The position numbers and the translations under genes were made by a program. A stretch of DNA of 24,566 nucleotides from a virus. Below the pieces are notes generated by a model that saw nothing but the letters and a program-made list of their open reading frames with translations, was not told where the DNA came from and did no database searches. The stretch covers positions 742 to 25,307 of the IMG/VR virus record IMGVR_UViG_3300030419_005317; one strand, given 5' to 3'. Numbering within the stretch: the stretch's first letter is position 1; every line of letters begins with the position of its first letter. Below, piece by piece: positions 3,194-24,566 of this stretch.

Positions 3194-3270
3194 TGGTGGG
3201 CTCTGTGGGACTTGAACCCACGACCAACCGGTTATGAGCCGGATGCTCTGACCAACTGAGCTAAGAGCCC
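3194..3270 (-). tRNA. tRNA with CAU anticodon, probably tRNA-Ile2 (k2C type)
   Basis: A complete 77-nt cloverleaf with encoded CCA: acceptor GGGCTCT/AGAGCCC, D arm AGCTCAGTTGGTCAGAGC, anticodon loop CTCATAA (anticodon CAT) and T arm GTGGG-TTCAAGT-CCCAC. The CAU anticodon leaves three options: initiator Met, elongator Met, or Ile2 read after lysidine modification. The CTTAGCTCAG start and the TTGGTCG variable region resemble bacterial tRNA-Ile2 more than tRNA-Met, so Ile2 (reading AUA) is favoured. Confidence 0.9.
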
Positions 3271-3290
3271 GTATTTATTAGATTTTTTAA

Positions 3291-3366
3291 TGGTGGGACC
3301 ACTGGGAATCGAACCCAGAACCTACGGGTTAAAAGCCCGTTGCTCTACCAGTTGAGCTATGGACCC
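3291..3366 (-). tRNA. tRNA-Lys (UUU)
   Basis: A 76-nt cloverleaf with encoded CCA. The anticodon stem ACGGG/CCCGT encloses loop CTTTTAA, giving anticodon TTT. The D arm (AGCTCAACTGGTAGAGC) and T arm (CTGGG-TTCGATT-CCCAG) are standard. The acceptor stem GGGTCCA/TGGTCCC has one U-U mismatch at the fourth pair, which is tolerable. It lies 4 bp from the upstream tRNA-Leu. Confidence 0.95.
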
Positions 3367-3370
3367 AAAA

Positions 3371-3456
3371 TGGTAGCTGATGCGGGATTCGAACCCGCAA
3401 GCCCGTACGGGCGGGAGATTTTAAGTCTCCTGTGTATACCGTTCCACCAATCAGCT
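3371..3456 (-). tRNA. tRNA-Leu (UAA)
   Basis: An 86-nt class II tRNA with acceptor AGCTGAT/ATCAGCT, encoded CCA, anticodon stem GGAGA/TCTCC with loop CTTAAAA (anticodon TAA), and a long variable arm (GCCCGTACGGGC) as expected for leucine. It is the first gene of the tRNA cluster, and the promoter at 3470-3498 ends just upstream. Confidence 0.95.
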
Positions 3457-4468: not shown

Positions 4469-4693
4469 CTAATAGTTTTTCTTGAGTATCATTTTTTGAA
4501 AATGGCTAATTTCTTCAATCTCTTGGCTGTCTACCGCTGATAGGTCGATAGTCTCCATGTCGGCCAAAAATTTAACTAAGTATTCTTTTTGAATTTGCAG
4601 ATCCAATATCTCATTTCTAAGTTGGAGTTCTTTTTGATCAATTCTTTGCAGTTGTATGGTGCAAAATAGTTTAAACTGATCAAATTTGCTCAT
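4469..4693 (-). CDS. Hypothetical coiled-coil protein, 74 aa
   Basis: The gene starts at ATG 4693-4691, overlapping the stop of the nucleotidyltransferase gene (ATGA). It is almost entirely helical with heptad-like leucine spacing (LQRIDQKELQLRNEILDLQ), followed by an acidic turn and a Lys-rich end. Coupling suggests that it is made with the nucleotidyltransferase-like protein upstream. Whether they interact is unknown. Confidence 0.7.
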   Translation of the reverse strand: MSKFDQFKLFCTIQLQRIDQKELQLRNEILDLQIQKEYLVKFLADMETIDLSAVDSQEIEEISHFQKMILKKNY

Positions 4694-5604
4694 TGGTCTA
4701 TCGACATTTGCTTATCGTACGATTGATTTTTTAAATCCGAAAGCCTCGCAAGATAGTCGGTCCTTCTTAATACTTTAAATGCAACATTTTCAATCGAATA
4801 TTGACCAAGCGCAGATTCAAGACCAGCTTGGCGCATGCTCCTAATTTTTTCCTTCAGGCGATCAGCCATTCGATAGGAAACTTGTGGTTCCTCTTCTAAT
4901 TTTTCTTCAGCCATTTCAATTTGTCTCATAATTGATGCCGCTTTTTTCTGTACGTTGGGTTCATCGATCTCAAACTGTCTCTCCCTCTCTGGCTGAATAA
5001 TCCACTCATCATTCATAATAGAGTAAATTCCAGTCGAGATGTGCTTCTCGCTCTCATCCTCAACATATATCTCAACCTCGTATCCCTTTAGCATAATATC
5101 GTGGGAGTGATTCCAGTTGATTCTCTTGCCGTCAAAGAATCCTTTTACCAAATCAAAGTTTTCATCCATCTCAGAAAATTTAACTACTATGTGCAAATCA
5201 ATATCTGAATACTGGGACCAGTTATAATTTGCCAGGGAGCCTGTTAGTCTTATATCAATAATCTGTATATCGACGTCTAGGTTGTCAATAAAGTCATTGG
5301 CAATCTGTACTAGATTTTCTCTGATTTTCGGCTCCAGTCTATTTTGTATCCACACGGCCGGCTCTAACTCATCTTTCTGATCGAAGCCGGCCACTGGTAC
5401 TTCGGTGGGGTTAACTTCTTCCAGCGCACCCGCGCCGGCAGGGGCGCTTTGGCTGCGACCAGCATGGGCCTTTTTTGTATATGGTTTCGTGTTTTTATGA
5501 CCACCTTTGAGGTACATAGACTTATTTTTCCTATGTTTGCTTCGCACCATTTTTTGGTACTTGCTAATCTCATTTATGGTATCGACGTAATTTTTCCAAG
5601 TCAT
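4690..5604 (-). CDS. Nucleotidyltransferase-fold protein (Pol-beta superfamily), 304 aa
   Basis: Residues 121-136 carry the superfamily signature: TGS (121-123), then NYNWSQYSD with the acidic pair D134-x-D136 (SDIDLHIVV). A likely third acid is E176 or E178 in YEVEIYVED. Such GS...DxD enzymes transfer nucleotides to proteins, RNA or small molecules. The substrate here cannot be told. The first 80 residues are basic, then low in complexity (Ala/Gly/Pro-rich), and look like a flexible tail. After the domain come charged helices (about 220-270). The start at ATG 5604 has only a distant GGAG. Similar single-domain proteins are known in tailed phages without an assigned function. Confidence 0.8.
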   Translation of the reverse strand: MTWKNYVDTINEISKYQKMVRSKHRKNKSMYLKGGHKNTKPYTKKAHAGRSQSAPAGAGALEEVNPTEVPVAGFDQKDELEPAVWIQNRLEPKIRENLVQIANDFIDNLDVDIQIIDIRLTGSLANYNWSQYSDIDLHIVVKFSEMDENFDLVKGFFDGKRINWNHSHDIMLKGYEVEIYVEDESEKHISTGIYSIMNDEWIIQPERERQFEIDEPNVQKKAASIMRQIEMAEEKLEEEPQVSYRMADRLKEKIRSMRQAGLESALGQYSIENVAFKVLRRTDYLARLSDLKNQSYDKQMSIDQ

Positions 5605-5632: not shown

Positions 5633-5980
5633 TTAGTTGTTCGGATATATAATCTGCTCTCCATCCTCAAATGTGAAAATTGTTTTGTTATCTGGGTGTG
5701 GGTGGACATGCACCTTTAGAAAATCCTCCAGCGAATCAAATATAGCAATACCACCACGGGGCGGCGGATAGAGCCAATGAATAATGGCATGCCCGGTCGC
5801 TAGCTGGACCCCTTCGATTACCACGCCGTCACCGGATACGCCAGTTTCATCATATTGCCGACACATCGTAAATGTCCTAATGCCTTGGGGCGCTAATCTC
5901 GGGGGAGGCTTTGGTTTTAGTTCTTCATTGTCCTTGTCGTCGATTTGGTCCGTGGTTTTTAAATCTTTCTTTTTCATCAT
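5633..5980 (-). CDS. Hypothetical protein, 115 aa
   Basis: Two adjacent ATG codons (5980 and 5977) follow a GGAG, and the first overlaps the upstream stop as ATGA. The second has better spacing. The N-terminal 35 residues are charged and proline-rich (KPKPPPRLAP), probably disordered. The rest looks like a small beta domain: GVVIEGVQLATGHAIIHWL, then IAIFDSLEDFLKVHVHPHP and FTFEDGEQ. The HVHPHP histidines could bind metal, but no family supports that. Function unknown. Confidence 0.75.
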   Translation of the reverse strand: MMKKKDLKTTDQIDDKDNEELKPKPPPRLAPQGIRTFTMCRQYDETGVSGDGVVIEGVQLATGHAIIHWLYPPPRGGIAIFDSLEDFLKVHVHPHPDNKTIFTFEDGEQIIYPNN

Positions 5981-6226: not shown

Positions 6227-7033
6227 TTAATAATTTGTTAAGCAGTTACTCTGTATCATAGAAAAATCTATCGCAGCAACCGGGGCACCATAAACAATAG
6301 TCTCGATGAGTTCTAATGTGGCGCCGCTATGGCCTATCTGAATGGCGCTCACAATTCCAATCAAATCGCCGTTAATGCTAAAAATTCCAGAACCGGAAGC
6401 CCCGTGCCATGCATATGACTGCAATAAAAACTTATCATGCGTGTATCCTGCAATTTGTCCTTTGATTGTCAAGCGTCCAGAGTCATTTGGATATCCTGTA
6501 TAGTATATCTGTTCGCCAATTGGATAGTGTTTGGACATATTTAAAGAGCTGTCAAGGAGTGCGGGCGTGACCGTCAACAGCTGATCATCCATCTCTAGAA
6601 GCGCTATGTCCAATTTCTCATCATAATAAACAACGTCATAGCACGACGTCGATTCTTCGGATGGAGTGGCTACAAACAAATAATCACAACTTTCCCCAAC
6701 CATGTGAGCAGCAGTTAGGACATAAAGGTTCTTGTCATATGTAACGTAGACTCCCGTACCAGTTGCAGATATTATGAAAGGTGGATAATCCAAAAAAATG
6801 GTAGAATAAATTTTTACCGTCGAATTTCTAGATCTTATTATGGTGCCTTTTTCTGTGCTTGGAAGCTCCGTTGAAAAATGTTCATATTCCTGCAAGTCGA
6901 AGGCCACATTGGGAAAGTACTCTCTCTCAACGTACTGGCGGTAAGTAATCAAAAACACAAGAGAGGCAATGGCTGCAAAAACAACCACAAGCGTCACCCA
7001 GTAAGATTTAATATAATTTATTATAGACCGCAA
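6227..7033 (-). CDS. Membrane-anchored trypsin-like serine protease, 268 aa
   Basis: Residues 11-30 form one membrane helix after a short basic start, so the protein is probably anchored with its catalytic part outside the cytoplasm. The trypsin-fold triad is complete: H110 in LTAAHMV, D142 in LDIALLEM and S213 in WHGASGSGIF, with a following GIVSA strand. This resembles the catalytic domain of HtrA/DegS-type proteases, but there is no PDZ domain. The start codon appears to be TTG 7033-7031, 11 bases after GGAG, since no ATG fits. It follows the 1177-aa gene by 16 bp. Possible jobs are processing virion or envelope proteins, or countering host defences. None is shown by the sequence. Confidence 0.85.
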   Translation of the reverse strand: MRSIINYIKSYWVTLVVVFAAIASLVFLITYRQYVEREYFPNVAFDLQEYEHFSTELPSTEKGTIIRSRNSTVKIYSTIFLDYPPFIISATGTGVYVTYDKNLYVLTAAHMVGESCDYLFVATPSEESTSCYDVVYYDEKLDIALLEMDDQLLTVTPALLDSSLNMSKHYPIGEQIYYTGYPNDSGRLTIKGQIAGYTHDKFLLQSYAWHGASGSGIFSINGDLIGIVSAIQIGHSGATLELIETIVYGAPVAAIDFSMIQSNCLTNY

Positions 7034-7049
7034 GATTATGGTTTCTCCT

Positions 7050-10000
7050 TTACACTTGTTTTTGGTAGTTAAAAATTACCGGTAACTCCTCCAATCCTAT
7101 ATCCTTTGCCGCAAAAACCGTGTCAATTCCATGTGTTATTTTTGCTCTTCCGTTTTTTCCAATCGCTAGCATAATCGGCTCAAGAGGCCCGCTCTTTATA
7201 AGATTCGATCTCACATGGTCAAAATCTCTCTTAGTGTTTCTATAAAATGGTGATGTGCAGTATTTCCACAACTCATCAACGCCCACCATGCTGTGATATC
7301 CCATGTTCGCGGTGTGGTACGGGACATCATATATTGCCTCGCCACTAGCTGCCCATGCGCCAATCACATCTTCTATCTGTGGCCGGGGAGTAACATGCAG
7401 TGGGCCCTGTAGGTTTTTGACTTGTGCGCCACCACCACCTTCCGATAGGCCCCCAGATATTTGCTCGATGCTGCTAATGCCACCGGGAAGGACTTTTAAT
7501 CCCTTAATCTTTAGAATTCCGGGCAGCAAAATAAGATTGACGTATTTTATTCTCGAACGGGTACCCTCCAACTCGAATTTTATTTTAAGGGTTGAATAAT
7601 AGTTCGTAGGATCTTGTCTCTGAGATTCCGGTACGACACTAACAACAGTTACACCCTCGATGCCTCTGATTTCCGTTTCAGTTTCTCCACGCTGGCCACC
7701 AACCGCTTTCGCCATAGCGCATTTCAACATTATCTGGTAAACTCTCAGGTCGTATCCCGGATCTTTCTCTCTAATTAAACTCAGCGCCTCGTCAATTACG
7801 CTATCTCGCTCGACGTTTGATTTCCAAGTTTTTTCGACGCTCTCTTGTGCTGGTCTTGGCTCTCCCATTGTACCTGCGACTGGCTCACTGCGTTGAACGC
7901 CGCCATAGCTGCTCTGCTGCCCATGAGTGCCGCCTAACAACCGAATTTGGTCCCTGACTTTATTCTCCCAAGTCGACGGCTTGCCGTAGTTATTGGGATC
8001 ATCCATTTCAATGCCGGGAATGTCGCGAGCAAAATTGAGTCTTCTCAGCGCCAGCGGCAGAATATACCTATAATAACCAACGTACTTCTCAATATCACCC
8101 ATATCGCCCCAGTTGTCTCTAATCCATTTGGTCACCATTATGGCCCTCTCAGCCCATTCGTCTGAACCGGACCGGGCGCGAGATGCGTAGGCACTATCGA
8201 TGCGCTGGGCTGCGGCCTCAAGACGCTTGCCTGAGAGCACTTCTTCTTTGTTCACATCTGCGAGTGCTTTGATTGTCTTGAAGCGCGTTCCGATGACTTC
8301 TTCGGCTGCGTCCTCCACCATCTCAGGGTTCTCGTTAAAGTATTTGATCATAGCCTTGACCGCGCTGATGGTTTCTTCTCCAGACTTAGCATCCACAAAA
8401 ATCTCAAACTTCCAGTTAACAAGTTGCGTCCGATATCCACCGCCGCTGAGACTTGATTCGGCTATAATAATAAAGCGAGAGTTTGATCTTAATACTTGTG
8501 CCCAAGGAGGTCCAGTTCTCACGGGCTTGTATCTGTCGCCTAGATCTAGCTGTTGTTGAGCGGTGTCTGTTTCCATCTCTCTGTAACGCCGGCGTAGGGC
8601 ATATACCATTTCTTGGTTAAGATCCGGGTTCTCGATCTTGGCGGGATGCGTGCGTGTGGGGGGAGAGCCAAACATTTTGCTGTAAAGCCCATCAATCATT
8701 CCTTCTTGTTCTTCATCGAACGCCCACATCTTAAACTCATTTGGAATCGAGGTGAGTTCCCCGCCAAGGTTGTTAACGGCGCTAGCGTGGTTGGGTGAGA
8801 TCCTAAACCAAAACTCTACATTGCTGCCGTTGGAGTCGTACACGTGCCAGTGTCTAAGATCGGTTGCAACAAGATCATCCTCGGCACGATCATAAGCTGT
8901 CTTGGCTATGAACTCGCCCTTAACCAAGTTCCTGCGTACTCGTTCTGCGATCTCGGCATAGGAGTCCTCAAAATTTTCTTGGATCTGACTAGCAAACTGC
9001 TCAAACTCCCATTTGGCTTCGTCAGGATCGGCTGCCGGCTCTTGGTGGGTCATACGAATTTCTATTTCAAGGTGTGCGGTTTTGGGGTGATCGGGGTTTA
9101 AGTCTTCTCCCTCTGGCTGGGCGCCTTGGAGCATTCTAACATCCCACTCAGTCTCACCTTCGCCGGGAAGATCCCATTCGATGTTCTCAATCTCAATCTC
9201 AGATGAGAAGTCTCGGGCTTCGTGGCCCCAAGTGTTGCCGGGGATTGGGTGGAAGTTGTCGTCATAGTCGCCGGAGCCTGCCTCTACCGAAGGGTAAAAA
9301 TCGTTGTCTCTCCTTACAATGTCAGGCCAACCCAAGTCAATCTGAAGACTGCAATAGGCGTTCATATAAATGTATGTTCCGTCGCCACCGTGTTCGTCTG
9401 GGCCCATCACCTGCGCGTCAATGCTGGAGTGTACTGCGTTATTGTTGTACTCTCCCTCGACCTCGTCCAGTACTTCTTGGATTGCTTGCTCATCGACAAC
9501 GCCTGTGAACGCAACGCTGGGGTTTTGTTGCTGGAGGTATTCCAGCATCTCTCGGAAGTCTTCTGGATTGCGTGAGTGTTCGCCGTCTTCTTGGACATTC
9601 GTGATGCCCATGTTGCTGATGAACCAACTGATGTGATCCCAGACCTCGTCGGGTGGGGCTTCGTTGCCGCGTCCCTTAATTTGATACAGGTAGTTGCCTC
9701 CGTATCCTTCATCTTCCCAAGTCATCGTGACATAGGACGAGGATGCCTTGCGCTTCTCTTTGCGCTTACGCAGCGACACAAGCACACCGCGAGAGTCTGA
9801 TCCGCAGTGTCCCATTCGTTCGCCTTCTACATCACAATTAGACACATTTAAATTATACCAATAGGAGCCATCAGGAAATTCGTGAATGACATTCTCTGGC
9901 TCTTCGCGGTTCTCTAGATCTTCTCTGGCTGTGTTGTATGCTGAGTCGATGTTGTCTTCGTTCTTAATCAGTTCATAGTTAGTAGGCTCGTCGTTAAGCC

Positions 10001-10583
10001 AAGAGAACAGCATGTCATATTGCGAGTACCATGAACGAAACTCTTGCATCATGTAGGTTTGCAACCACTCTTTTACTTTCTCGACCTTCTCCGATTCCAC
10101 GCCGGCTTTGCTTAGGGCCTTCACAGCTTTCATAAATGACTTGCGCCAAGTGCCGGCAGGCTTGCCCCACGCTGCGCTTACATTCTGAACGACGAAGGCG
10201 ATCTTCTTGTTTCGATCGACCATTTCATCGTCGTACATCTTGCGCTGCTGTGGCCCAACATTGCGGTCGACGCGGTAGGGGGTTATTGTTCGGGCATCAA
10301 CCTTAGTTGTTCCGTCGCTGTCGTTGGTTATTTGTATCTCGTCTTCGAAGTTTTCCTCCATGAAGGAACGCCACCGCTTTTTTAGAACATCGTGGGTATA
10401 CGCAGAGGGGAGCGTGTGGTCCTTCCACTGGTTGCCGGCATACATCTTTGACTTCTCGGGCGCTCTTGCCATCGCGTTCTCGATAAAGTCGACGATCCGT
10501 TCGGGGAGACCTATATCCCTCAACCCTTCTTCTAATATTTCTTCGTTTAGGTATTTAAACCAGCTGCCTGTTGCTATATCCAT
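7050..10583 (-). CDS. Giant multidomain phage protein with MGHC motif and ParB-like C-terminal domain, 1177 aa
   Basis: The largest gene in the window, with start ATG 10583-10581. Residues 1-60 begin WFKYLNEEILEEGLRDIG. Residues 241-310 read YWYNLNVSNCDVEGERMGHCGS, then LVSLR, a VTMTW strand and QIKGRGN. I recall this block from unnamed phage proteins, where Cys and His are conserved. Around residues 930-1050 a beta-alpha-beta segment (EIRGIEGVTVVSV ... TLKIKFEL) suggests a ferredoxin-like fold. Residues about 1118-1177 (VRSNLIKSGPLEPIML ... KITHGIDTVFAAK ... LEELPVIF) match the layout of a ParB/sulfiredoxin-like domain, but without the usual GHHR arginine. It could be a virion or injected protein. 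The enzymatic role, if any, is unknown. Confidence 0.85.
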   Translation of the reverse strand: MDIATGSWFKYLNEEILEEGLRDIGLPERIVDFIENAMARAPEKSKMYAGNQWKDHTLPSAYTHDVLKKRWRSFMEENFEDEIQITNDSDGTTKVDARTITPYRVDRNVGPQQRKMYDDEMVDRNKKIAFVVQNVSAAWGKPAGTWRKSFMKAVKALSKAGVESEKVEKVKEWLQTYMMQEFRSWYSQYDMLFSWLNDEPTNYELIKNEDNIDSAYNTAREDLENREEPENVIHEFPDGSYWYNLNVSNCDVEGERMGHCGSDSRGVLVSLRKRKEKRKASSSYVTMTWEDEGYGGNYLYQIKGRGNEAPPDEVWDHISWFISNMGITNVQEDGEHSRNPEDFREMLEYLQQQNPSVAFTGVVDEQAIQEVLDEVEGEYNNNAVHSSIDAQVMGPDEHGGDGTYIYMNAYCSLQIDLGWPDIVRRDNDFYPSVEAGSGDYDDNFHPIPGNTWGHEARDFSSEIEIENIEWDLPGEGETEWDVRMLQGAQPEGEDLNPDHPKTAHLEIEIRMTHQEPAADPDEAKWEFEQFASQIQENFEDSYAEIAERVRRNLVKGEFIAKTAYDRAEDDLVATDLRHWHVYDSNGSNVEFWFRISPNHASAVNNLGGELTSIPNEFKMWAFDEEQEGMIDGLYSKMFGSPPTRTHPAKIENPDLNQEMVYALRRRYREMETDTAQQQLDLGDRYKPVRTGPPWAQVLRSNSRFIIIAESSLSGGGYRTQLVNWKFEIFVDAKSGEETISAVKAMIKYFNENPEMVEDAAEEVIGTRFKTIKALADVNKEEVLSGKRLEAAAQRIDSAYASRARSGSDEWAERAIMVTKWIRDNWGDMGDIEKYVGYYRYILPLALRRLNFARDIPGIEMDDPNNYGKPSTWENKVRDQIRLLGGTHGQQSSYGGVQRSEPVAGTMGEPRPAQESVEKTWKSNVERDSVIDEALSLIREKDPGYDLRVYQIMLKCAMAKAVGGQRGETETEIRGIEGVTVVSVVPESQRQDPTNYYSTLKIKFELEGTRSRIKYVNLILLPGILKIKGLKVLPGGISSIEQISGGLSEGGGGAQVKNLQGPLHVTPRPQIEDVIGAWAASGEAIYDVPYHTANMGYHSMVGVDELWKYCTSPFYRNTKRDFDHVRSNLIKSGPLEPIMLAIGKNGRAKITHGIDTVFAAKDIGLEELPVIFNYQKQV

Positions 10584-13426: not shown

Positions 13427-14995
13427 TTAAACCTCCACTATGGCATGGTTGGTTGTAATCAAGGTGCCTGCGACTGACGCTGCGTTTTTAAGAGCGCAGC
13501 GTGTAACCTTGACCGGATCGATTATCCCATTTTCAAACATATTCACCGTCTTCCTGTTCAAGAAATCATAACCGTGATCTGTTTCGCATTGCAGGACTGT
13601 TTGCAGAATTAAGTCCGCAGATTCTCCGGCATTGTGCGCCATCTGCCTCAACGGAGCCTTCACGGCTTCAAAGATAATATTCACACCAAGCTGCTGCTCA
13701 TCGTTGGCTGTTTCAACCTCCAAGTCATTAAGGGCGTTAAGTAGTGCAACTCCGCCGCCCGGTACGACACCCTCAATTTGAGCCGACCTCACCGCCTCTA
13801 GCGCGTCTTCAATTCTGTGTTTCTTTTCTATCATCTCTACTTCGGTGGGTGCGCCAACGTGAATCACCGCAACACCAGACGCTAGCCGAGTTATTCTTTC
13901 TTGAATTCTGACTATTTCAGTGTCGTGTTCTTCATTCTTTAACTGCTCTTTCAGGGCCTCAATTCGTTCATCTATTAACTCGTAGTCAGCGTTAGTGCCG
14001 ATGATGGTTGTTGCATATTTAGATGACTCAATCGTACTGGCGGTACCTAAATGCTTAAGTTGAATTTCATTAAGTTTGATGCCTGACTCCCGGGAAACGA
14101 ACGTCGCGTTCGTCGACAAAGCGAGATCATTCAGTATGTTTCGGCGCTCTTCTCCGTACCTTGGCGCTTTGATGGCGGCCACCTTTAACGTACCCCGCAT
14201 GACATTCATAATCAAAGCGGCCAGTGCTTGCCCTTCAATGTCTTCGGCCACTATTATCAGGGGCCTATTCTCGCGAGCAATAACCTCCAGCACCGGCAAA
14301 ATATGCTCAACAGATGCTATCTTGTGATCCGTAACCAAGATAAAAGGATCGTCATATTTCATAACGCCGCGGCGCTCGTCGGTCACGAATGCTCCGGCAC
14401 AAAAACCAGAATCAAATCTAAAACCCTCTGTCACGTCAAGGCTGGTTTCAAGCGAGCGCGCCTCTTCGATTGTAACGGAACCATCCTTGCCAACACGATC
14501 AACCGCCAACGCCACAAGCTGGCCAATCGACTTATCATTGTTGGCAGATATTGTTGCAATATGCGCGATATCTTCGGCACTCCTTACCGGCTTAGCCATG
14601 CTAAGCAGCTTGTCCGAAATTGCGTTGGTGGCTATGTCGATGCCCCTTTTAAGCTCAACAGGGGAAACGCCAGAAGTAATGTATTTCTGTGCGTTTTGTA
14701 GTATGGCCCCAGCCAACACTGTCGACGTGGTGGTACCATCGCCGGCATCCGAGTTTGTTTGGATCGCGGCCTCTTTAATAATCTGCACGCCAGCGTTCGA
14801 TATTGGATCTTCTAGCGTGATAAACTTAGCTACTGTGACGCCATCTTTTGTGATGAACGGGTTCGCACCTTTCTGCTGAATGATAACGTTGCGGCCGCGA
14901 GGACCAAGCGTTGATGCCACATTATCAGCTAGCAAGCTAGCACCCTCTAAAATCTTTTGGCTCAATGACTGACTGTCATCATAAACCTTTGACAA
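13427..14995 (-). CDS. groEL: GroEL-type chaperonin (HSP60), 522 aa
   Basis: The protein aligns with bacterial GroEL along its full length: LGPRGRNVIIQ near residue 31, KDGVTVAK, the ATP-site DAGDGTTTSTVLAG, the apical segment with DGSVTIEE and APRYGEERR, RIEDALEAVRSAQIEGVVPGGG, and GIIDPVKVTR near the end. The GGM-repeat tail is absent, as in many phage chaperonins. The start is TTG 14995-14993 (SKVYDDSQS follows), supported by GAGAGGTG. Phage GroELs fold virion or other phage proteins. No GroES homologue is visible here, so it may use the host's or work alone. A perfect consensus promoter drives it. Confidence 0.97.
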   Translation of the reverse strand: MSKVYDDSQSLSQKILEGASLLADNVASTLGPRGRNVIIQQKGANPFITKDGVTVAKFITLEDPISNAGVQIIKEAAIQTNSDAGDGTTTSTVLAGAILQNAQKYITSGVSPVELKRGIDIATNAISDKLLSMAKPVRSAEDIAHIATISANNDKSIGQLVALAVDRVGKDGSVTIEEARSLETSLDVTEGFRFDSGFCAGAFVTDERRGVMKYDDPFILVTDHKIASVEHILPVLEVIARENRPLIIVAEDIEGQALAALIMNVMRGTLKVAAIKAPRYGEERRNILNDLALSTNATFVSRESGIKLNEIQLKHLGTASTIESSKYATTIIGTNADYELIDERIEALKEQLKNEEHDTEIVRIQERITRLASGVAVIHVGAPTEVEMIEKKHRIEDALEAVRSAQIEGVVPGGGVALLNALNDLEVETANDEQQLGVNIIFEAVKAPLRQMAHNAGESADLILQTVLQCETDHGYDFLNRKTVNMFENGIIDPVKVTRCALKNAASVAGTLITTNHAIVEV

Positions 14996-17201: not shown

Positions 17202-17924
17202 CTATATAATTGAATCAGCAATTCCTAATTCAATTGCTTCCTCTGCTGATAAATAGACATTGATTTTTCTTTCAATGATTTTTTTAAGCTGGGCTTTGGT
17301 CATACTCGTCTCGTTAACCAAGGCGTTGAGGTAGGAGTCCTGAATGTCCTGAATCGCTTCGAATTCGTTTTTTAAATCATGCATCGCGCCGTGCGTACCA
17401 GCATTGACTGAATGAATCATGACGCGACAATTTTTGCCAATTTGTCGTTTACCCTTAGTGCCGCCGGCCAACAGCAGCACTCCGGCTGACATTACTTTGC
17501 CATAGCCCTTGGTGTGTATTTCGCATCCATCTTCTTGGATCTGCTTCATTAAATCATAAATCGCAAACATATCATCGGCATTGCCGCCATATGTGGATAT
17601 ATAAAACTCTATCGGCTTTGTGGTTGGTTTATTCTTTTTGGATTTCTTCTTTTTGGGTGCGCCGTCATCCTTTGGTTGCGGGGGGGCCTTAAGGGTCAAT
17701 AGGCCGTGCATTATATCGGCCATTTTTTCCTGATCCAAGTCGGATAACAGCGCGATCATCCGGTAATCTTCTGGTGGGCTAGCGAGTGTTTCCAGCAAAT
17801 CTCCGGCCTGAACAATGGATATCTTTTTATCTCCGCCCTCTACGTCGTATTCTTCTGATGCCGCTGGGGGCGCCTCGACCAAATCGCGTATAATATCTTT
17901 AATTTTTTGTTTTATAAAATTCAT
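17202..17924 (-). CDS. ClpP-like serine protease homologue, 240 aa
   Basis: The ClpP/crotonase fold is clear: FYISTYGGNADDMFAIYD (107-124), GKVMSAGVLLLAGG (142-155) with nucleophile S146, and RVMIHSVNAGTHG (167-179) with H171. A closing YLSAEEAIELGIADSI (224-239) follows. The third triad residue, normally Asp two places before the aromatic of [FY][LM]SA, reads Asn (N222). A Lys-rich insert (about 85-102, KKKKSKKNK) interrupts the domain. No Clp ATPase lies nearby. In phages, S14 peptidases often act as capsid maturation proteases. That or a regulatory role is possible. Confidence 0.85.
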   Translation of the reverse strand: MNFIKQKIKDIIRDLVEAPPAASEEYDVEGGDKKISIVQAGDLLETLASPPEDYRMIALLSDLDQEKMADIMHGLLTLKAPPQPKDDGAPKKKKSKKNKPTTKPIEFYISTYGGNADDMFAIYDLMKQIQEDGCEIHTKGYGKVMSAGVLLLAGGTKGKRQIGKNCRVMIHSVNAGTHGAMHDLKNEFEAIQDIQDSYLNALVNETSMTKAQLKKIIERKINVYLSAEEAIELGIADSII

Positions 17925-19589: not shown

Positions 19590-19912
19590 AGTTCTGGGTA
19601 CTCCTTTTCAATTATATCGAACAAATTGTCTATCTCATTCTCATCAAATATGAGTTGTTTAGCTGCTTCCTTTCCTTCTTCAATTTCTTTCCGCGATTTT
19701 TTAATCTTATCCTTACTTTGTATTTTGTTGGCGATGCGGTGTTGGTCCATGTAATCTAAAATTAACGAATTGTTTTCCAAATATCCCGTTAATAGGGCGC
19801 GGAAAAAATCAGACTGAGTCATGCCGTCGTGTTTAAGCTTGACTTTTAGTTTGGCATGCCTGTGTTCGTCATCAAAAAATATTATTCTTTTTTGCTGTTT
19901 CTCATACGCCAT
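19586..19912 (-). CDS. Possible ribbon-helix-helix protein, 108 aa
   Basis: The start is ATG 19912-19910 in a TGATG overlap with the GuaB-like gene, with GAGAG upstream. A TTG one codon earlier is less likely. The first 50 residues (KRIIFFDDEHRHAKLKVKL, then DGMTQSDFFRALLTGYLE) have a strand followed by two helices, with the T-Q-S-D-F-F-R-A-L helix typical of Arc/MetJ-like proteins. The rest is highly charged and helical (KDKIKKSRKEIEEGKEAAK). I recall related unnamed phage proteins. DNA binding is inferred. Confidence 0.7.
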   Translation of the reverse strand: MAYEKQQKRIIFFDDEHRHAKLKVKLKHDGMTQSDFFRALLTGYLENNSLILDYMDQHRIANKIQSKDKIKKSRKEIEEGKEAAKQLIFDENEIDNLFDIIEKEYPEL

Positions 19913-20973
19913 CAATTTCTCTCATATATATGCGTCCCGCTTTCAAATGCGCCGGCAGAGGATTGCTTAATAAACTCTGCCGTGGCCTGTAGCTCGCCTA
20001 TTGTGCGCGCTCCCGTATAGGACAGTCCGGACTTAATTCCTCTGACTAGTCCAGTGATTGTGTTTTCCACTGGGCCGGCGGCAGGAACATGACTGGAAAC
20101 ACCTTCAAGCGAGCTAACGCGGCCGCGCCAATCGATTTGTGCTTGCATGCTAGCCATACCGCGATAAACTTTACACAGTTCGCCTTCTGAATTTTTTAAC
20201 ACCGGGCCGGGAGTCTCCGTGGTGCCGGCAACCAATGAGCCGACCATAACCATGTCGGCGCCGGCGGCGAGAGCCTTTACAATATCTCCGGAATTTTTAA
20301 TTCCACCGTCAGCGATAATTTTAACATCTGCATATGGATGATTGGCATGCCGGAGAGTGGCGCGCATATCGTTGCAGTCACGGACCGATTGCCATGTTGG
20401 AACGCCATGGCCGGTTTTAATTCTTGTCGAGCAAATTGAGCCACCACCGATTCCGACGCGTATACTTGAAGCCCCCCAGTGGGCCAAATCTCTAAACCCG
20501 TAATGTGTGGCAATGTTTCCAGCCATCAGGTGCTTGTCGCCCCCAAATCGTGCACGCAAAATACGCAAGGCCGACTCCATGGTGACATGATGGCCGTGGG
20601 CCACATCGATGCAAAGAATATCTGCACCGGCGTTGTGTAGTTCCTGTGCCCGCTCTTCAAAATCGCCGGTAACACCGATGGCAGCTGCAATTATTCCATG
20701 CTCGTCGACGGCGTTGCGAATTTTTTTAACGATTCCAGCTTGTACATCGATGTCGTTATATCGATGCACGATACCCAAGCCGCCTAAATTGCTCATACCG
20801 ATCGCCATATCCGTTTCTGTAATGGTGTCCATTGGCGCTGTGATTATCGGAATGTCTAATGATTGAGTCGGTGAGAGTTTCACGCTAAGATCGACTTCCG
20901 ATCTAGAAACTATATCCGAATATCTTGGTCGCAATAAAACATCATCAAAACTAAGGGCTTCGCTAAAACTCAT
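19912..20973 (-). CDS. guaB: IMP dehydrogenase/GMP reductase family enzyme without CBS domains, 353 aa
   Basis: The TIM-barrel signature is complete: [14 protein letters not shown] (7-20), APMDT (46-50), CIDVAHGH (121-128), AGNIAT (151-156), [18 protein letters not shown] (173-190) with catalytic C181, ADGGI and VGSLVAGT, and YRGMAS (270-275). The CBS pair that normally sits near residue 80-90 is missing, so the length equals that of GMP reductase. The early GRPRYSD/VDLS features and YRGM look more IMPDH-like. IMPDH makes XMP from IMP, and GMP reductase makes IMP from GMP. Either would alter purine pools for phage DNA. Which reaction it catalyses cannot be settled by eye. The ATG overlaps the upstream stop. 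Confidence 0.93.
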
Positions 20974-22839: not shown

Positions 22840-22974
22840 TTATTTACTTTTTTTGTCTGATCTGCACACCTCAACAACGAGAAAGCACACGATCACCAAA
22901 CCTATATATGATTTAACAAGAAAATTTGTAATTTTTTCTGCTTTTGAAGTTTTCCTTTTCTTACCCACGGTCAT
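22840..22974 (-). CDS. Tiny single-pass membrane protein, 44 aa
   Basis: A 44-codon frame starts at ATG 22974-22972, overlapping the polymerase stop as ATGA. A basic N-terminus (TVGKKRKTSKAEK) precedes one membrane helix (SYIGLVIVCFLVVEVC) and a charged end. The inside-positive pattern suggests the N-terminus lies in the cytoplasm. It is too small to assign. A holin-like or membrane-stress role is possible but unsupported. Confidence 0.6.
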   Translation of the reverse strand: MTVGKKRKTSKAEKITNFLVKSYIGLVIVCFLVVEVCRSDKKSK

Positions 22975-24566
22975 GCTAGCAACTTGAATGTCCTGCCAAT
23001 TGCATATGTTGAAAAGCCCCAATTTGAGTCATAATTTAACTTAGCCATATACGGCCTGTTTAAGAAAATTCGGTCTTTCTCGGGCTTAACTCCCCAGCAG
23101 CGAATCTTTGTCAATTCATTATTGCTGTCAATCACCTCAACAATCCAATATAACTTGCCATTTTTGGTTTTCTTCGGAACGATCTTGCGAGGAATGAACC
23201 AGCAAACCTCCAACTGAGGATCGAATTCCGAAACTGGTGGAACAAACTTTTCTTGAAGTCTCTGGATTGTTTCCGGCCTAATGACCAAGTTGATAGGAAA
23301 GACCCCGGTTAATTCTGTTTTGAATTGGATTATTTCTTCTTCGGTGAAATCGCCCTCTGGACGATATAAATCAATGTTTTCATGAAGTCTTTTGAGGTTT
23401 TTAGGTCGCTCAACTATGCATGCCGACCAAAAGTGCTTCCTACCGGAAAACCTATCATCCATCATGTCATCCAAGGCACCACCGCGACAAAGGGCATCTA
23501 GTGCCTTTTTGTTCAGCTTGGAGTACACAATATTTTCTCTAAACAAGAGATCTTCTGCGTCTTCGAATGGCCTATGGTTTAATATTTGCTCAATAGCAGA
23601 AGCGCCCAAGCCCTTGATTGACGTCAATGGTTGAATAAGTGTTTTGCTATCGCCATTGATCTCCCAGACGGTGCCGGATTTATTAATATCCAATGGTGCA
23701 ATCTTGAACCCAAACTTCTTGGCCACATTGATTGCTCTCTCTTTTCTTGTTTCTGGCTCTTTATCCAAGAAAGCAGCCATCCATTCGGTAGGATAATAGT
23801 TCCACAACCATGCGCACTGGTATGAAATAATGGAGTATGAAACCGCATGTGACTTATTGAAGCCGTAGCCCGAGAAATACTCAAATTTGTCCCAGAGCGC
23901 TTGAGCCTCATCACGGTGGATGGAATTCGCCATACATCCTGTAATGAACTTGTCGTGCAGCTTGCCCTTTGCGGATCCCTTGCCTGTTCCCTTTTTGGTT
24001 AAAACCTTTCGGAGCATGTTGCCCTCATCTAAACTTAGACCTCCGAGCTTATGCGCCAATAGTGCAATTTGCTCCTGAAAGATCAGGAACCCAAATGTCT
24101 CTTGGGTAATGTCGTGCGCGTCTTCATTGAGATATTTGATATACTGCGGGCTTTCTTTTGCCTCTACGTATTCATCGTGCACTCCGGCCGCCAAGGGGCC
24201 CGGTCGATAGATAGACGTGATCGCTGATAAGTCGATAATGTTGCGTGGCTTTGTGCGTGTGCAAAATTTTTGCGCGCCCTGTTCGGTAAACTGAAATATG
24301 CCAGCCCACTTCCCTTCATGGAAAACGTTCTCATATACCTCCTGATCGTTTAGATCCAAAACGTCTGGGTGTAGGTTGTTTTCGTAATATTCGCGGATCT
24401 GTTCGAACGTTGGTTCTTCAATATCGTGATGGCGCTTAAGGATGTGATAAATCGCACCCTCCATCATCTTTAGTGTAGACAAGCCGAGCAAATCGAATTT
24501 AATGAAGCCCATCGGTTCAAGGTGGCGAACGTTCTGCCCCTCAGACCATGGCGCCTGCCTGACACC
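22971..24566 (-). CDS. dnaE: DNA polymerase III alpha subunit (C family, DnaE type), C-terminal part, 531 aa visible
   Basis: The frame is open to the window edge, so the 5' part (PHP and early palm) is missing. Visible are GFIKFDLLGLSTL (19-31) with the third catalytic Asp, GIFQFTEQGAQKF, SIYRPGPL, LIFQEQIALLAHKLGGLSL, the FSGYGFNKSHAVSYSIISYQ block, a helix-hairpin-helix (LTSIKGLGASAIEQIL) and an OB-type domain (LEVCWFIPRKI ... YWIVEVI). It is the replicative polymerase of the phage. C-family enzymes are less common in phages than A- or B-family ones. The family is certain. Whether all catalytic residues are present is not visible. Confidence 0.96.
   Translation of the reverse strand, partial: GVRQAPWSEGQNVRHLEPMGFIKFDLLGLSTLKMMEGAIYHILKRHHDIEEPTFEQIREYYENNLHPDVLDLNDQEVYENVFHEGKWAGIFQFTEQGAQKFCTRTKPRNIIDLSAITSIYRPGPLAAGVHDEYVEAKESPQYIKYLNEDAHDITQETFGFLIFQEQIALLAHKLGGLSLDEGNMLRKVLTKKGTGKGSAKGKLHDKFITGCMANSIHRDEAQALWDKFEYFSGYGFNKSHAVSYSIISYQCAWLWNYYPTEWMAAFLDKEPETRKERAINVAKKFGFKIAPLDINKSGTVWEINGDSKTLIQPLTSIKGLGASAIEQILNHRPFEDAEDLLFRENIVYSKLNKKALDALCRGGALDDMMDDRFSGRKHFWSACIVERPKNLKRLHENIDLYRPEGDFTEEEIIQFKTELTGVFPINLVIRPETIQRLQEKFVPPVSEFDPQLEVCWFIPRKIVPKKTKNGKLYWIVEVIDSNNELTKIRCWGVKPEKDRIFLNRPYMAKLNYDSNWGFSTYAIGRTFKLLA

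What the first reader, a model, noticed from the sequence alone, without database searches (positions are those of the whole stretch)
7050..10583. Undescribed 1177-aa phage protein with MGHC domain, ferredoxin-like segment and ParB-like end
The protein joins a block with RMGHCGS, a VTMTW strand and KGRGN (241-310), a possible ferredoxin-like domain and a C-terminal ParB/sulfiredoxin-like domain without its usual arginine. Conserved Cys and His in the MGHC block suggest chemistry or metal binding. Its size and its place beside a membrane-anchored protease suggest a virion or injected protein that may be processed.
Basis: partly seen in the sequence, partly recalled or inferred. Interest (0 to 1): 0.6.

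Follow-up and report, generated by a model that had tools for sequence, protein, structure and literature searches.

The report
Likely head-packaged, modular phage protein
A large protein of uncultured T4-like marine phages carries a cleavable-looking address tag and swappable front modules, which suggests that it is packed in the virus head and delivered into the bacterium, although no experiment has yet shown this.

Summary
The 1177-aa ORF is real (minus strand, 7050-10583) and belongs to a family in many IMG/VR contigs of T4-like marine phages. Its only cultured relative found is the unannotated gp31 of Salicola phage SCTP-2. C250, H259 and C260 are invariant in 41 full-length and 66 domain sequences. 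The 'MGHC block' is a divergent PcfJ-like domain (PF14284): hhalign score 53.6 against at most 23 in 199 of 200 shuffles, and Pfam PcfJ matches 18 of 66 members. AlphaFold2 supports the ferredoxin-like (946-1041) and ParB/sulfiredoxin-like (1070-1174) folds; an invariant Asp replaces the ParB Arg. New here: an N-terminal tag (xxWFxYL...[LI]xE|G) is shared with non-homologous proteins (Pol-beta NTase; a Nudix-like protein in one contig) and nearly absent from other gene families. The phage encodes a gp21-like prohead protease, and T4 gp21 cuts after L/I-x-E. At the same slot other genomes keep the tag, middle and C-terminus but swap the N-terminal module. Best reading: a T4-CTS-like, head-packaged, ejected multidomain protein trimmed by the prohead protease, not by the adjacent, probably periplasm-facing trypsin-like protease. 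Virion location and activity are untested.

The parts
7050..10583 (-). 1177-aa multidomain protein (134 kDa, pI 4.9, no clear transmembrane segment by hydrophobicity)
   Evidence: family
10527..10583 (-). N-terminal tag, residues 1-19 (MDIATGSWFKYLNEEILEE|G); LEE (17-19) fits the L/I-x-E consensus of T4 gp21
   Evidence: 65/65 MGHC-type N-termini and 77/78 of all tagged N-termini have [LI]xE after the tag; the tag is also on NTase and Nudix-like proteins; consensus from PMC9026906
9609..9908 (-). PcfJ-like 'MGHC' domain, residues 226-325 (C250, E253, H259, C260, R272, Q301-x-x-G304-x-x-N307)
   Evidence: hhalign and shuffles, Pfam PcfJ in 18 of 66 members, AF2 model pTM 0.77
7884..9488 (-). 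Middle region, residues 366-900: conserved between the two long architectures, no known relative
   Evidence: hhalign 340-520 vs the SCH type: prob 97, 143 columns
7461..7751 (-). Ferredoxin-like babbab domain, residues 945-1041
   Evidence: AF2 secondary structure; Foldseek 2x3d/3bpd prob 1.00, TMt 0.56-0.59
7053..7376 (-). ParB/sulfiredoxin-like domain, residues 1070-1177, with invariant Asp1154 where ParB has the G-x-x-R Arg
   Evidence: Foldseek ParB 7bm8 first hit; alignments A4 and A5
6227..7033 (-). Trypsin-like serine protease with N-terminal hydrophobic anchor; H110, D142 and S213 invariant and C116/C131 nearly invariant in 68 homologues
   Evidence: directly downstream in all 61 loci that extend far enough
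4690..5604 (-). Pol-beta-type nucleotidyltransferase carrying a tag-like N-terminus (MTWKNYVDTINEIS)
   Evidence: PF01909 E 6.2e-5; tag in homologues
5633..5980 (-). Conserved 115-aa protein of the same gene block (phrog_7499), untagged

Best explanation
This is a head-packaged (internal) protein of a T4-like marine phage that is ejected with the DNA. Step 1 (inferred): the N-terminal 12-19 residues act as a capsid targeting sequence that draws the protein into the prohead core. Step 2 (inferred): the phage's gp21-like prohead protease removes the tag after L17-E18-E19. Step 3 (inferred): the mature protein enters the host with the DNA. Step 4 (inferred, weakest): the exchangeable N-terminal module, here a PcfJ-like domain, acts on a host or defence target, while the constant middle, ferredoxin-like and probably inactive ParB-like parts serve for assembly or binding. 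Shown by sequence: the domains, the tag, its sharing with unrelated proteins, the conserved slot and the module swap.
For: A tag of the form x-x-W-F-x-[YFH]-[LIV] ... [LI]-x-E|G heads the 65 non-redundant MGHC-type N-termini (one has W-N), although spacer length and sequence vary; 77 of 78 tagged proteins have [LI]xE. The tag is kept when the following ~500 residues are entirely different (SCH type) and in ~260-aa short forms. It also occurs on a non-homologous NTase (27 of 43 by a strict pattern; 56 of 64 for this family) and on a Nudix-like ORF in L132, while the other 22 gene families with 4 or more members have 5 matches in all. The contig encodes a gp21-like head maturation protease (phrog_207, E 2.9e-57), and its major capsid protein has LRE|A at residue 60, close to T4's 65-residue propeptide, while the portal has no such site in its first 140 residues. 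T4 gp21 cuts after L/I-X-E, removing 7-65-residue propeptides, and 10 residues suffice for targeting (PMC9026906). The genome is T4-like (terminase, portal, sheath, capsid).
Against: No virion proteomics was found for any relative. The gene lies far from the head genes of the contig, between chaperone/protease genes and others. The tag resembles T4's CTS only in general form. Family members are related, so 65 of 65 is not 65 independent observations; the null rate of [LI]xE per 30 residues is 23%. Clustering merged this family and the NTase through shared linkers, so exchange of tag and linker rather than independent origin may explain part of the sharing. About a third of NTase homologues lack the tag by the strict pattern.
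Confidence: 0.6

Rival explanations
1. It is a non-virion cytoplasmic protein made during infection, working with the ClpP and GroEL genes of the same block or in DNA metabolism, as PcfJ genes may do in Herelleviridae; the N-terminal motif is an oligomerisation or partner-binding helix shared by operon members.
For: Conserved order clpP - groEL - ... - this gene - protease - g5633 - NTase. PcfJ genes of SPO1-like phages lie near RNase H, thymidylate synthase and polymerase genes.
Against: Does not explain why the tag is followed by an [LI]xE site across variable spacers, nor why it is on three unrelated protein types but absent from GroEL, the trypsin-like protease, g5633 and other neighbours.
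Confidence: 0.25
2. It is a structural tail, neck or baseplate protein of the virion whose ferredoxin-like and ParB-like folds are scaffolding, and whose sequence variation reflects structural adaptation.
For: Large size, many members in T4-like genomes, no confident enzyme assignment.
Against: No PHROG structural family matches. Wholesale exchange of the N-terminal part and 253-262-aa short forms at the same slot are unusual for an essential structural part.
Confidence: 0.12
3. The PcfJ-like MGHC domain is a GNAT-like acyltransferase that modifies a host protein after injection, as GNATs of polyvalent proteins are thought to do (a refinement of the best explanation, not exclusive with it).
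For: Most of the 50 best PDB matches of the isolated-domain model are GNAT, MYST or HAT1 acetyltransferases, and Q-x-x-G-x-[GS] follows the third strand of the sheet. GNATs occur in polyvalent proteins (PMC5512222).
Against: Best E 0.088, prob 0.80, TM mostly 0.25-0.53, many of the hits redundant; no acetyltransferase match by sequence; GNATs have no conserved His-Cys pair (own knowledge).
Confidence: 0.2
4. The adjacent membrane-anchored trypsin-like protease processes this protein.
For: Strict adjacency in 61 of 61 informative loci.
Against: Signal-anchor-like N-terminus and a conserved Cys pair point to the periplasm, while the protein has no signal or transmembrane segment. A prohead protease with a fitting site exists.
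Confidence: 0.08

Closest known systems
Salicola phage SCTP-2 gp31 (ASV44046.1, hypothetical protein)
   Same: Same MGHC domain with C, E, H-C, R, KG-x-x-N and P positions; model-to-model match at E 6e-7 to a 735-aa BFVD entry (A0A248SJ20) of the same length as gp31, identified by length only
   Different: 735 aa, 17% identity over the full-length alignment, no clear tag of the WF form
PcfJ-like family (PF14284; PcfJ of pCF10, phage PcfJ proteins)
   Same: E-G-x-x-[LM]-x-H-C, then an R-ending strand, T-x-[ET], Q-x-x-G-x-x-N in the same order; hhalign prob 95, 66 columns
   Different: Below the Pfam cut-off; V after HC is G; extra invariant C250; embedded in a 1177-aa protein; no PcfK/AcrIIA9 neighbour
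Polyvalent proteins of phages and conjugative elements (Iyer et al. 2017, PMC5512222)
   Same: Large multidomain phage protein, module exchange, ParB-superfamily domain, Pol-beta NTase gene nearby
   Different: ParB-like domain lacks the active-site Arg; PcfJ is not mentioned in that paper's text; not beside head genes
T4 internal proteins and Alt with capsid targeting sequence
   Same: Short N-terminal tag ending in L/I-x-E, shared by otherwise unrelated proteins; gp21-like protease in the genome
   Different: Different tag sequence; far larger cargo than the internal proteins; packaging untested

Membership tests
PcfJ-like (PF14284) | Profile match over the Pfam gathering score | tested here: not met
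   Window protein: no PcfJ match. Of 66 family members 18 match at E up to 10, best 0.004, the most frequent of all Pfam families
PcfJ-like (PF14284) | Profile-profile similarity above chance, with conserved residues aligned | tested here: met
   hhalign score 53.6, E 1.4e-8 over 66 columns; 199 of 200 column shuffles at most 23 (the one outlier is a 7-column artefact); windows that do not overlap the domain give prob below 1
PcfJ-like (PF14284) | E-G-x-x-L-x-H-C and Q-x-x-G-x-x-N motifs | tested here: met
   E253, M257 (for L), H259, C260, Q301, G304, N307 invariant
PcfJ-like (PF14284) | PcfK/AcrIIA9-type partner gene next door (usual, not obligatory) | tested here: not met
   Neighbours are a membrane protein or cupin and a trypsin-like protease
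T4-type CTS internal/ejected protein | Short N-terminal propeptide ending in L/I-x-E | tested here: met
   LEE|G at residues 17-19; site present in 65/65 relatives; cleavage itself not tested
T4-type CTS internal/ejected protein | gp21-like prohead protease in the genome | tested here: met
   phrog_207 E 2.9e-57
T4-type CTS internal/ejected protein | Tag shared with non-homologous proteins of the same phages | tested here: met
   Pol-beta NTase, and a Nudix-like ORF in one contig
T4-type CTS internal/ejected protein | Present and processed in the virion head | not testable with these tools
   needs virion proteomics
Polyvalent proteins | Several domains of disparate biochemistry in one chain | tested here: inconclusive
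   PcfJ-like, ferredoxin-like and ParB-like domains; no activity assigned to any
Polyvalent proteins | Gene among packaging/late genes or transfer genes | tested here: inconclusive
   Same T4-like contig, but about 46 kb or more from the capsid, portal and terminase genes
ParB/sulfiredoxin superfamily | Fold | tested here: met
   Foldseek first hits ParB and sulfiredoxin, prob 1.00, but E 0.014 or more
ParB/sulfiredoxin superfamily (active nuclease/NTPase) | G-x-x-R active-site Arg | tested here: not met
   Asp in 37/37
[Fe-S] ferredoxin | Cysteine cluster ligands | tested here: not met
   one Cys (955) in the domain; only the fold is shared
GNAT acetyltransferase | Significant fold or sequence match | tested here: inconclusive
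   GNATs dominate weak hits, best E 0.088; none by sequence

The most novel reading that the evidence does not exclude
These uncultured T4-like marine phages use one N-terminal address tag plus L/I-x-E cleavage site to load a set of unrelated proteins (this protein, a nucleotidyltransferase, a Nudix-like protein) into the head. The large member is a cassette protein whose N-terminal effector module (PcfJ-like MGHC or SCH type) is swapped between genomes on a constant carrier, making the PcfJ-like domain a new class of injected host- or defence-targeting domain.
Probability: 0.4. Interest if true: 0.72.

Novelty: new variant of a known kind. Interest (0 to 1): 0.55.

Why it matters
PcfJ-like proteins are widespread in plasmids and phages, and no function for them was found in the papers searched. 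Placing a PcfJ-like domain in a probable ejected phage protein, as the exchangeable module, suggests where to look. The tag gives a sequence rule for predicting head-packaged proteins in uncultured T4-like marine phages, which could be tested by virion proteomics.

Tried and rejected
Whole-protein Pfam, PHROGs, NCBIfam and PDB sequence searches gave nothing usable. INPHARED tblastn of the whole protein: no match. GTDB genome contigs with a strict motif: no relative, so no host is assigned. SCH module as a homologue of the MGHC domain: it shares C-x2-E-x6-C spacing and a similar order of elements, but hhalign gives prob below 1 even after trimming; not claimed. One column shuffle gave a huge hhalign score; inspected and found to be a 7-column artefact. 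PcfJ function in the literature: nothing found.

Full report
OBSERVATION. The reported protein is an ATG-initiated ORF of 1177 codons on the minus strand, 7050-10583; the other strand is closed. The window is part of an 82,426-base IMG/VR virus record that is T4-like: terminase, portal, tail sheath, major head protein, DnaB-type helicase and UvsX.

RELATIVES. The whole protein matches no Pfam or PHROG family and no INPHARED phage at E 1e-5. Six close relatives, 49 loci by profile and 129 domain hits, 80 kept, came from IMG/VR. The only cultured relative is gp31 of Salicola phage SCTP-2, found with the domain at E 0.1 and supported by alignment, by its place in the 32-sequence alignment with the same invariant residues, and by a Foldseek match to a 735-aa BFVD entry of the same length (E 6e-7; identity with gp31 inferred from length). 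C250, E253, H259, C260, R272, K303, G304, N307 and P310 are invariant.

THE MGHC BLOCK IS PcfJ-LIKE. From memory the pattern recalled PcfJ; this was then tested. pCF10 PcfJ and nine to ten relatives from phages and plasmids were aligned. hhalign of the MGHC domain against PcfJ gives score 53.6, prob 95.5, E 1.4e-8 over 66 columns, with H-C, R, T and Q-x-x-G-x-x-N in register. 199 of 200 column shuffles reach at most 23.0, the remaining one is a 7-column numerical artefact, and windows of the protein that do not overlap the domain give prob below 1. Independently, a Pfam scan of 66 members has PcfJ as the most frequent family (18 members, best E 0.004). It stays below the curated cut-off, so this is a divergent relative, not a formal member. 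The isolated-domain model (pTM 0.77) has GNAT/MYST/HAT acetyltransferases as most of its best PDB matches, but none is significant (best E 0.088); this is a lead only.

C-TERMINAL DOMAINS. The full-length AlphaFold2 model (41 sequences, mean pLDDT 80.5, pTM 0.43) predicts a beta-alpha-beta-beta-alpha-beta unit at 946-1041 and a ParB/sulfiredoxin-like unit at 1070-1174. Foldseek's first PDB hits are ParB (7bm8, 7bnk) and the ferredoxin-like archaeal proteins 2x3d and 3bpd, all prob 1.00 but E above 0.01. At the G-x-x-R position of ParB the family has G-x-x-D, D in 37 of 37. The nucleotide or DNA chemistry of ParB is therefore unlikely.

MODULE EXCHANGE. A scan with the C-terminal 249 residues showed three architectures at the same slot: the MGHC type; an SCH type of about 1290-1620 aa, in which the N-terminal ~365 residues are replaced by an unrelated module with SRHPxDVLRMSD...SCH...CA while the middle and C-terminus remain homologous (26-28% identity over ~800 residues in several cases); and short 253-262-aa forms with only the C-terminal part (one of the three, L225, may be a split gene). 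The trypsin-like protease follows in every case with enough downstream sequence.

NEIGHBOURHOOD. groEL - ... - membrane protein - this gene - trypsin-like protease - g5633 - NTase is conserved; the protease is directly downstream in all 61 loci that extend far enough. The protease has an invariant H110/D142/S213 triad in 68 homologues, C116/C131 in 67 of 68, and a hydrophobic N-terminus, which suggests a periplasmic site and argues against it acting on this protein in the cytoplasm.

THE TAG. The 65 non-redundant MGHC N-termini read M-x(n)-W-F-x-[YFHR]-[LIV] (one with W-N), followed after a spacer of variable length by [LI]-x-E and nearly always G. SCH-type and short forms keep the tag, often with Lys/Pro-rich spacers and again [LI]-x-E. 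The non-homologous NTase neighbours often begin with the same kind of tag (MDKWFRILREER, MNGTNWKDFVDSIHE), and in L132 a Nudix-like ORF does too. Among the other 22 gene families with at least four members in these loci, 5 sequences match the tag pattern. The contig encodes a gp21-like prohead protease; its major capsid protein has LRE|A at residue 60 and its portal no such site in the first 140 residues, as in T4, where gp23 is cut and the portal is not processed (PMC5694885). T4 gp21 cuts after L/I-X-E; internal proteins and Alt carry short targeting propeptides (PMC9026906; PMC5694885), and T-even internal proteins are diverse counter-defence proteins with only the targeting sequence conserved (PMC3012670).

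CONCLUSION. The best-supported mechanism is a CTS-like tagged, prohead-protease-trimmed, ejected multidomain protein with an exchangeable N-terminal module. Packaging, cleavage and injection are inferred; what the PcfJ-like domain does is unknown and the acetyltransferase lead is weak. It works like T4 internal proteins and polyvalent proteins; formal membership of the latter is inconclusive.

Noticed in passing
contig G000:C1 about 69503-82360 (L141), outside the window: Seven ORFs begin with a second shared N-terminal sequence, MKITKQQLKQIIREELE or similar, although the rest of the proteins looks different; possibly another targeting tag.
   Followed up: partly
contig G000:C1:70889-71938 (L141:6090-7139:-): Tubulin/FtsZ-like protein (TIGR00065 E 1.7e-8; phrog_4733 PhuZ E 3e-4) in a T4-like phage contig.
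   Followed up: no
window 22971-24566 and L139:12-1934: DNA polymerase III alpha-like protein appears split over two minus-strand ORFs (PHP part upstream, C-terminal part in the window); split gene, frameshift or inserted element not resolved.
   Followed up: no
L029-L057 and many L059-L137: About half of the contigs found by the N-terminus end inside this gene, which seems more than contigs of this size should give; local hypervariability may break assembly.
   Followed up: no
SCH-type proteins, e.g. L185:794-4756: Alternative N-terminal module with SRHPxDVLRMSDxxxxxSCHxEGxxxFxCAxxEsxGxGxIAY, no Pfam/PHROG match; its C-x2-E-x6-C spacing equals that of the MGHC domain, but profile comparison is not significant.
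   Followed up: partly
L212 and NTase proteins: An internal linker of the large protein near its C-terminal domains is 56-75% identical to N-terminal regions of NTase neighbours, suggesting exchange of tag/linker segments.
   Followed up: no
window 13427-14995, 17202-17924, 19912-20973: Phage-encoded GroEL-like, ClpP-like and IMP dehydrogenase-like genes in one region, with three tRNAs at 3194-3456.
   Followed up: no
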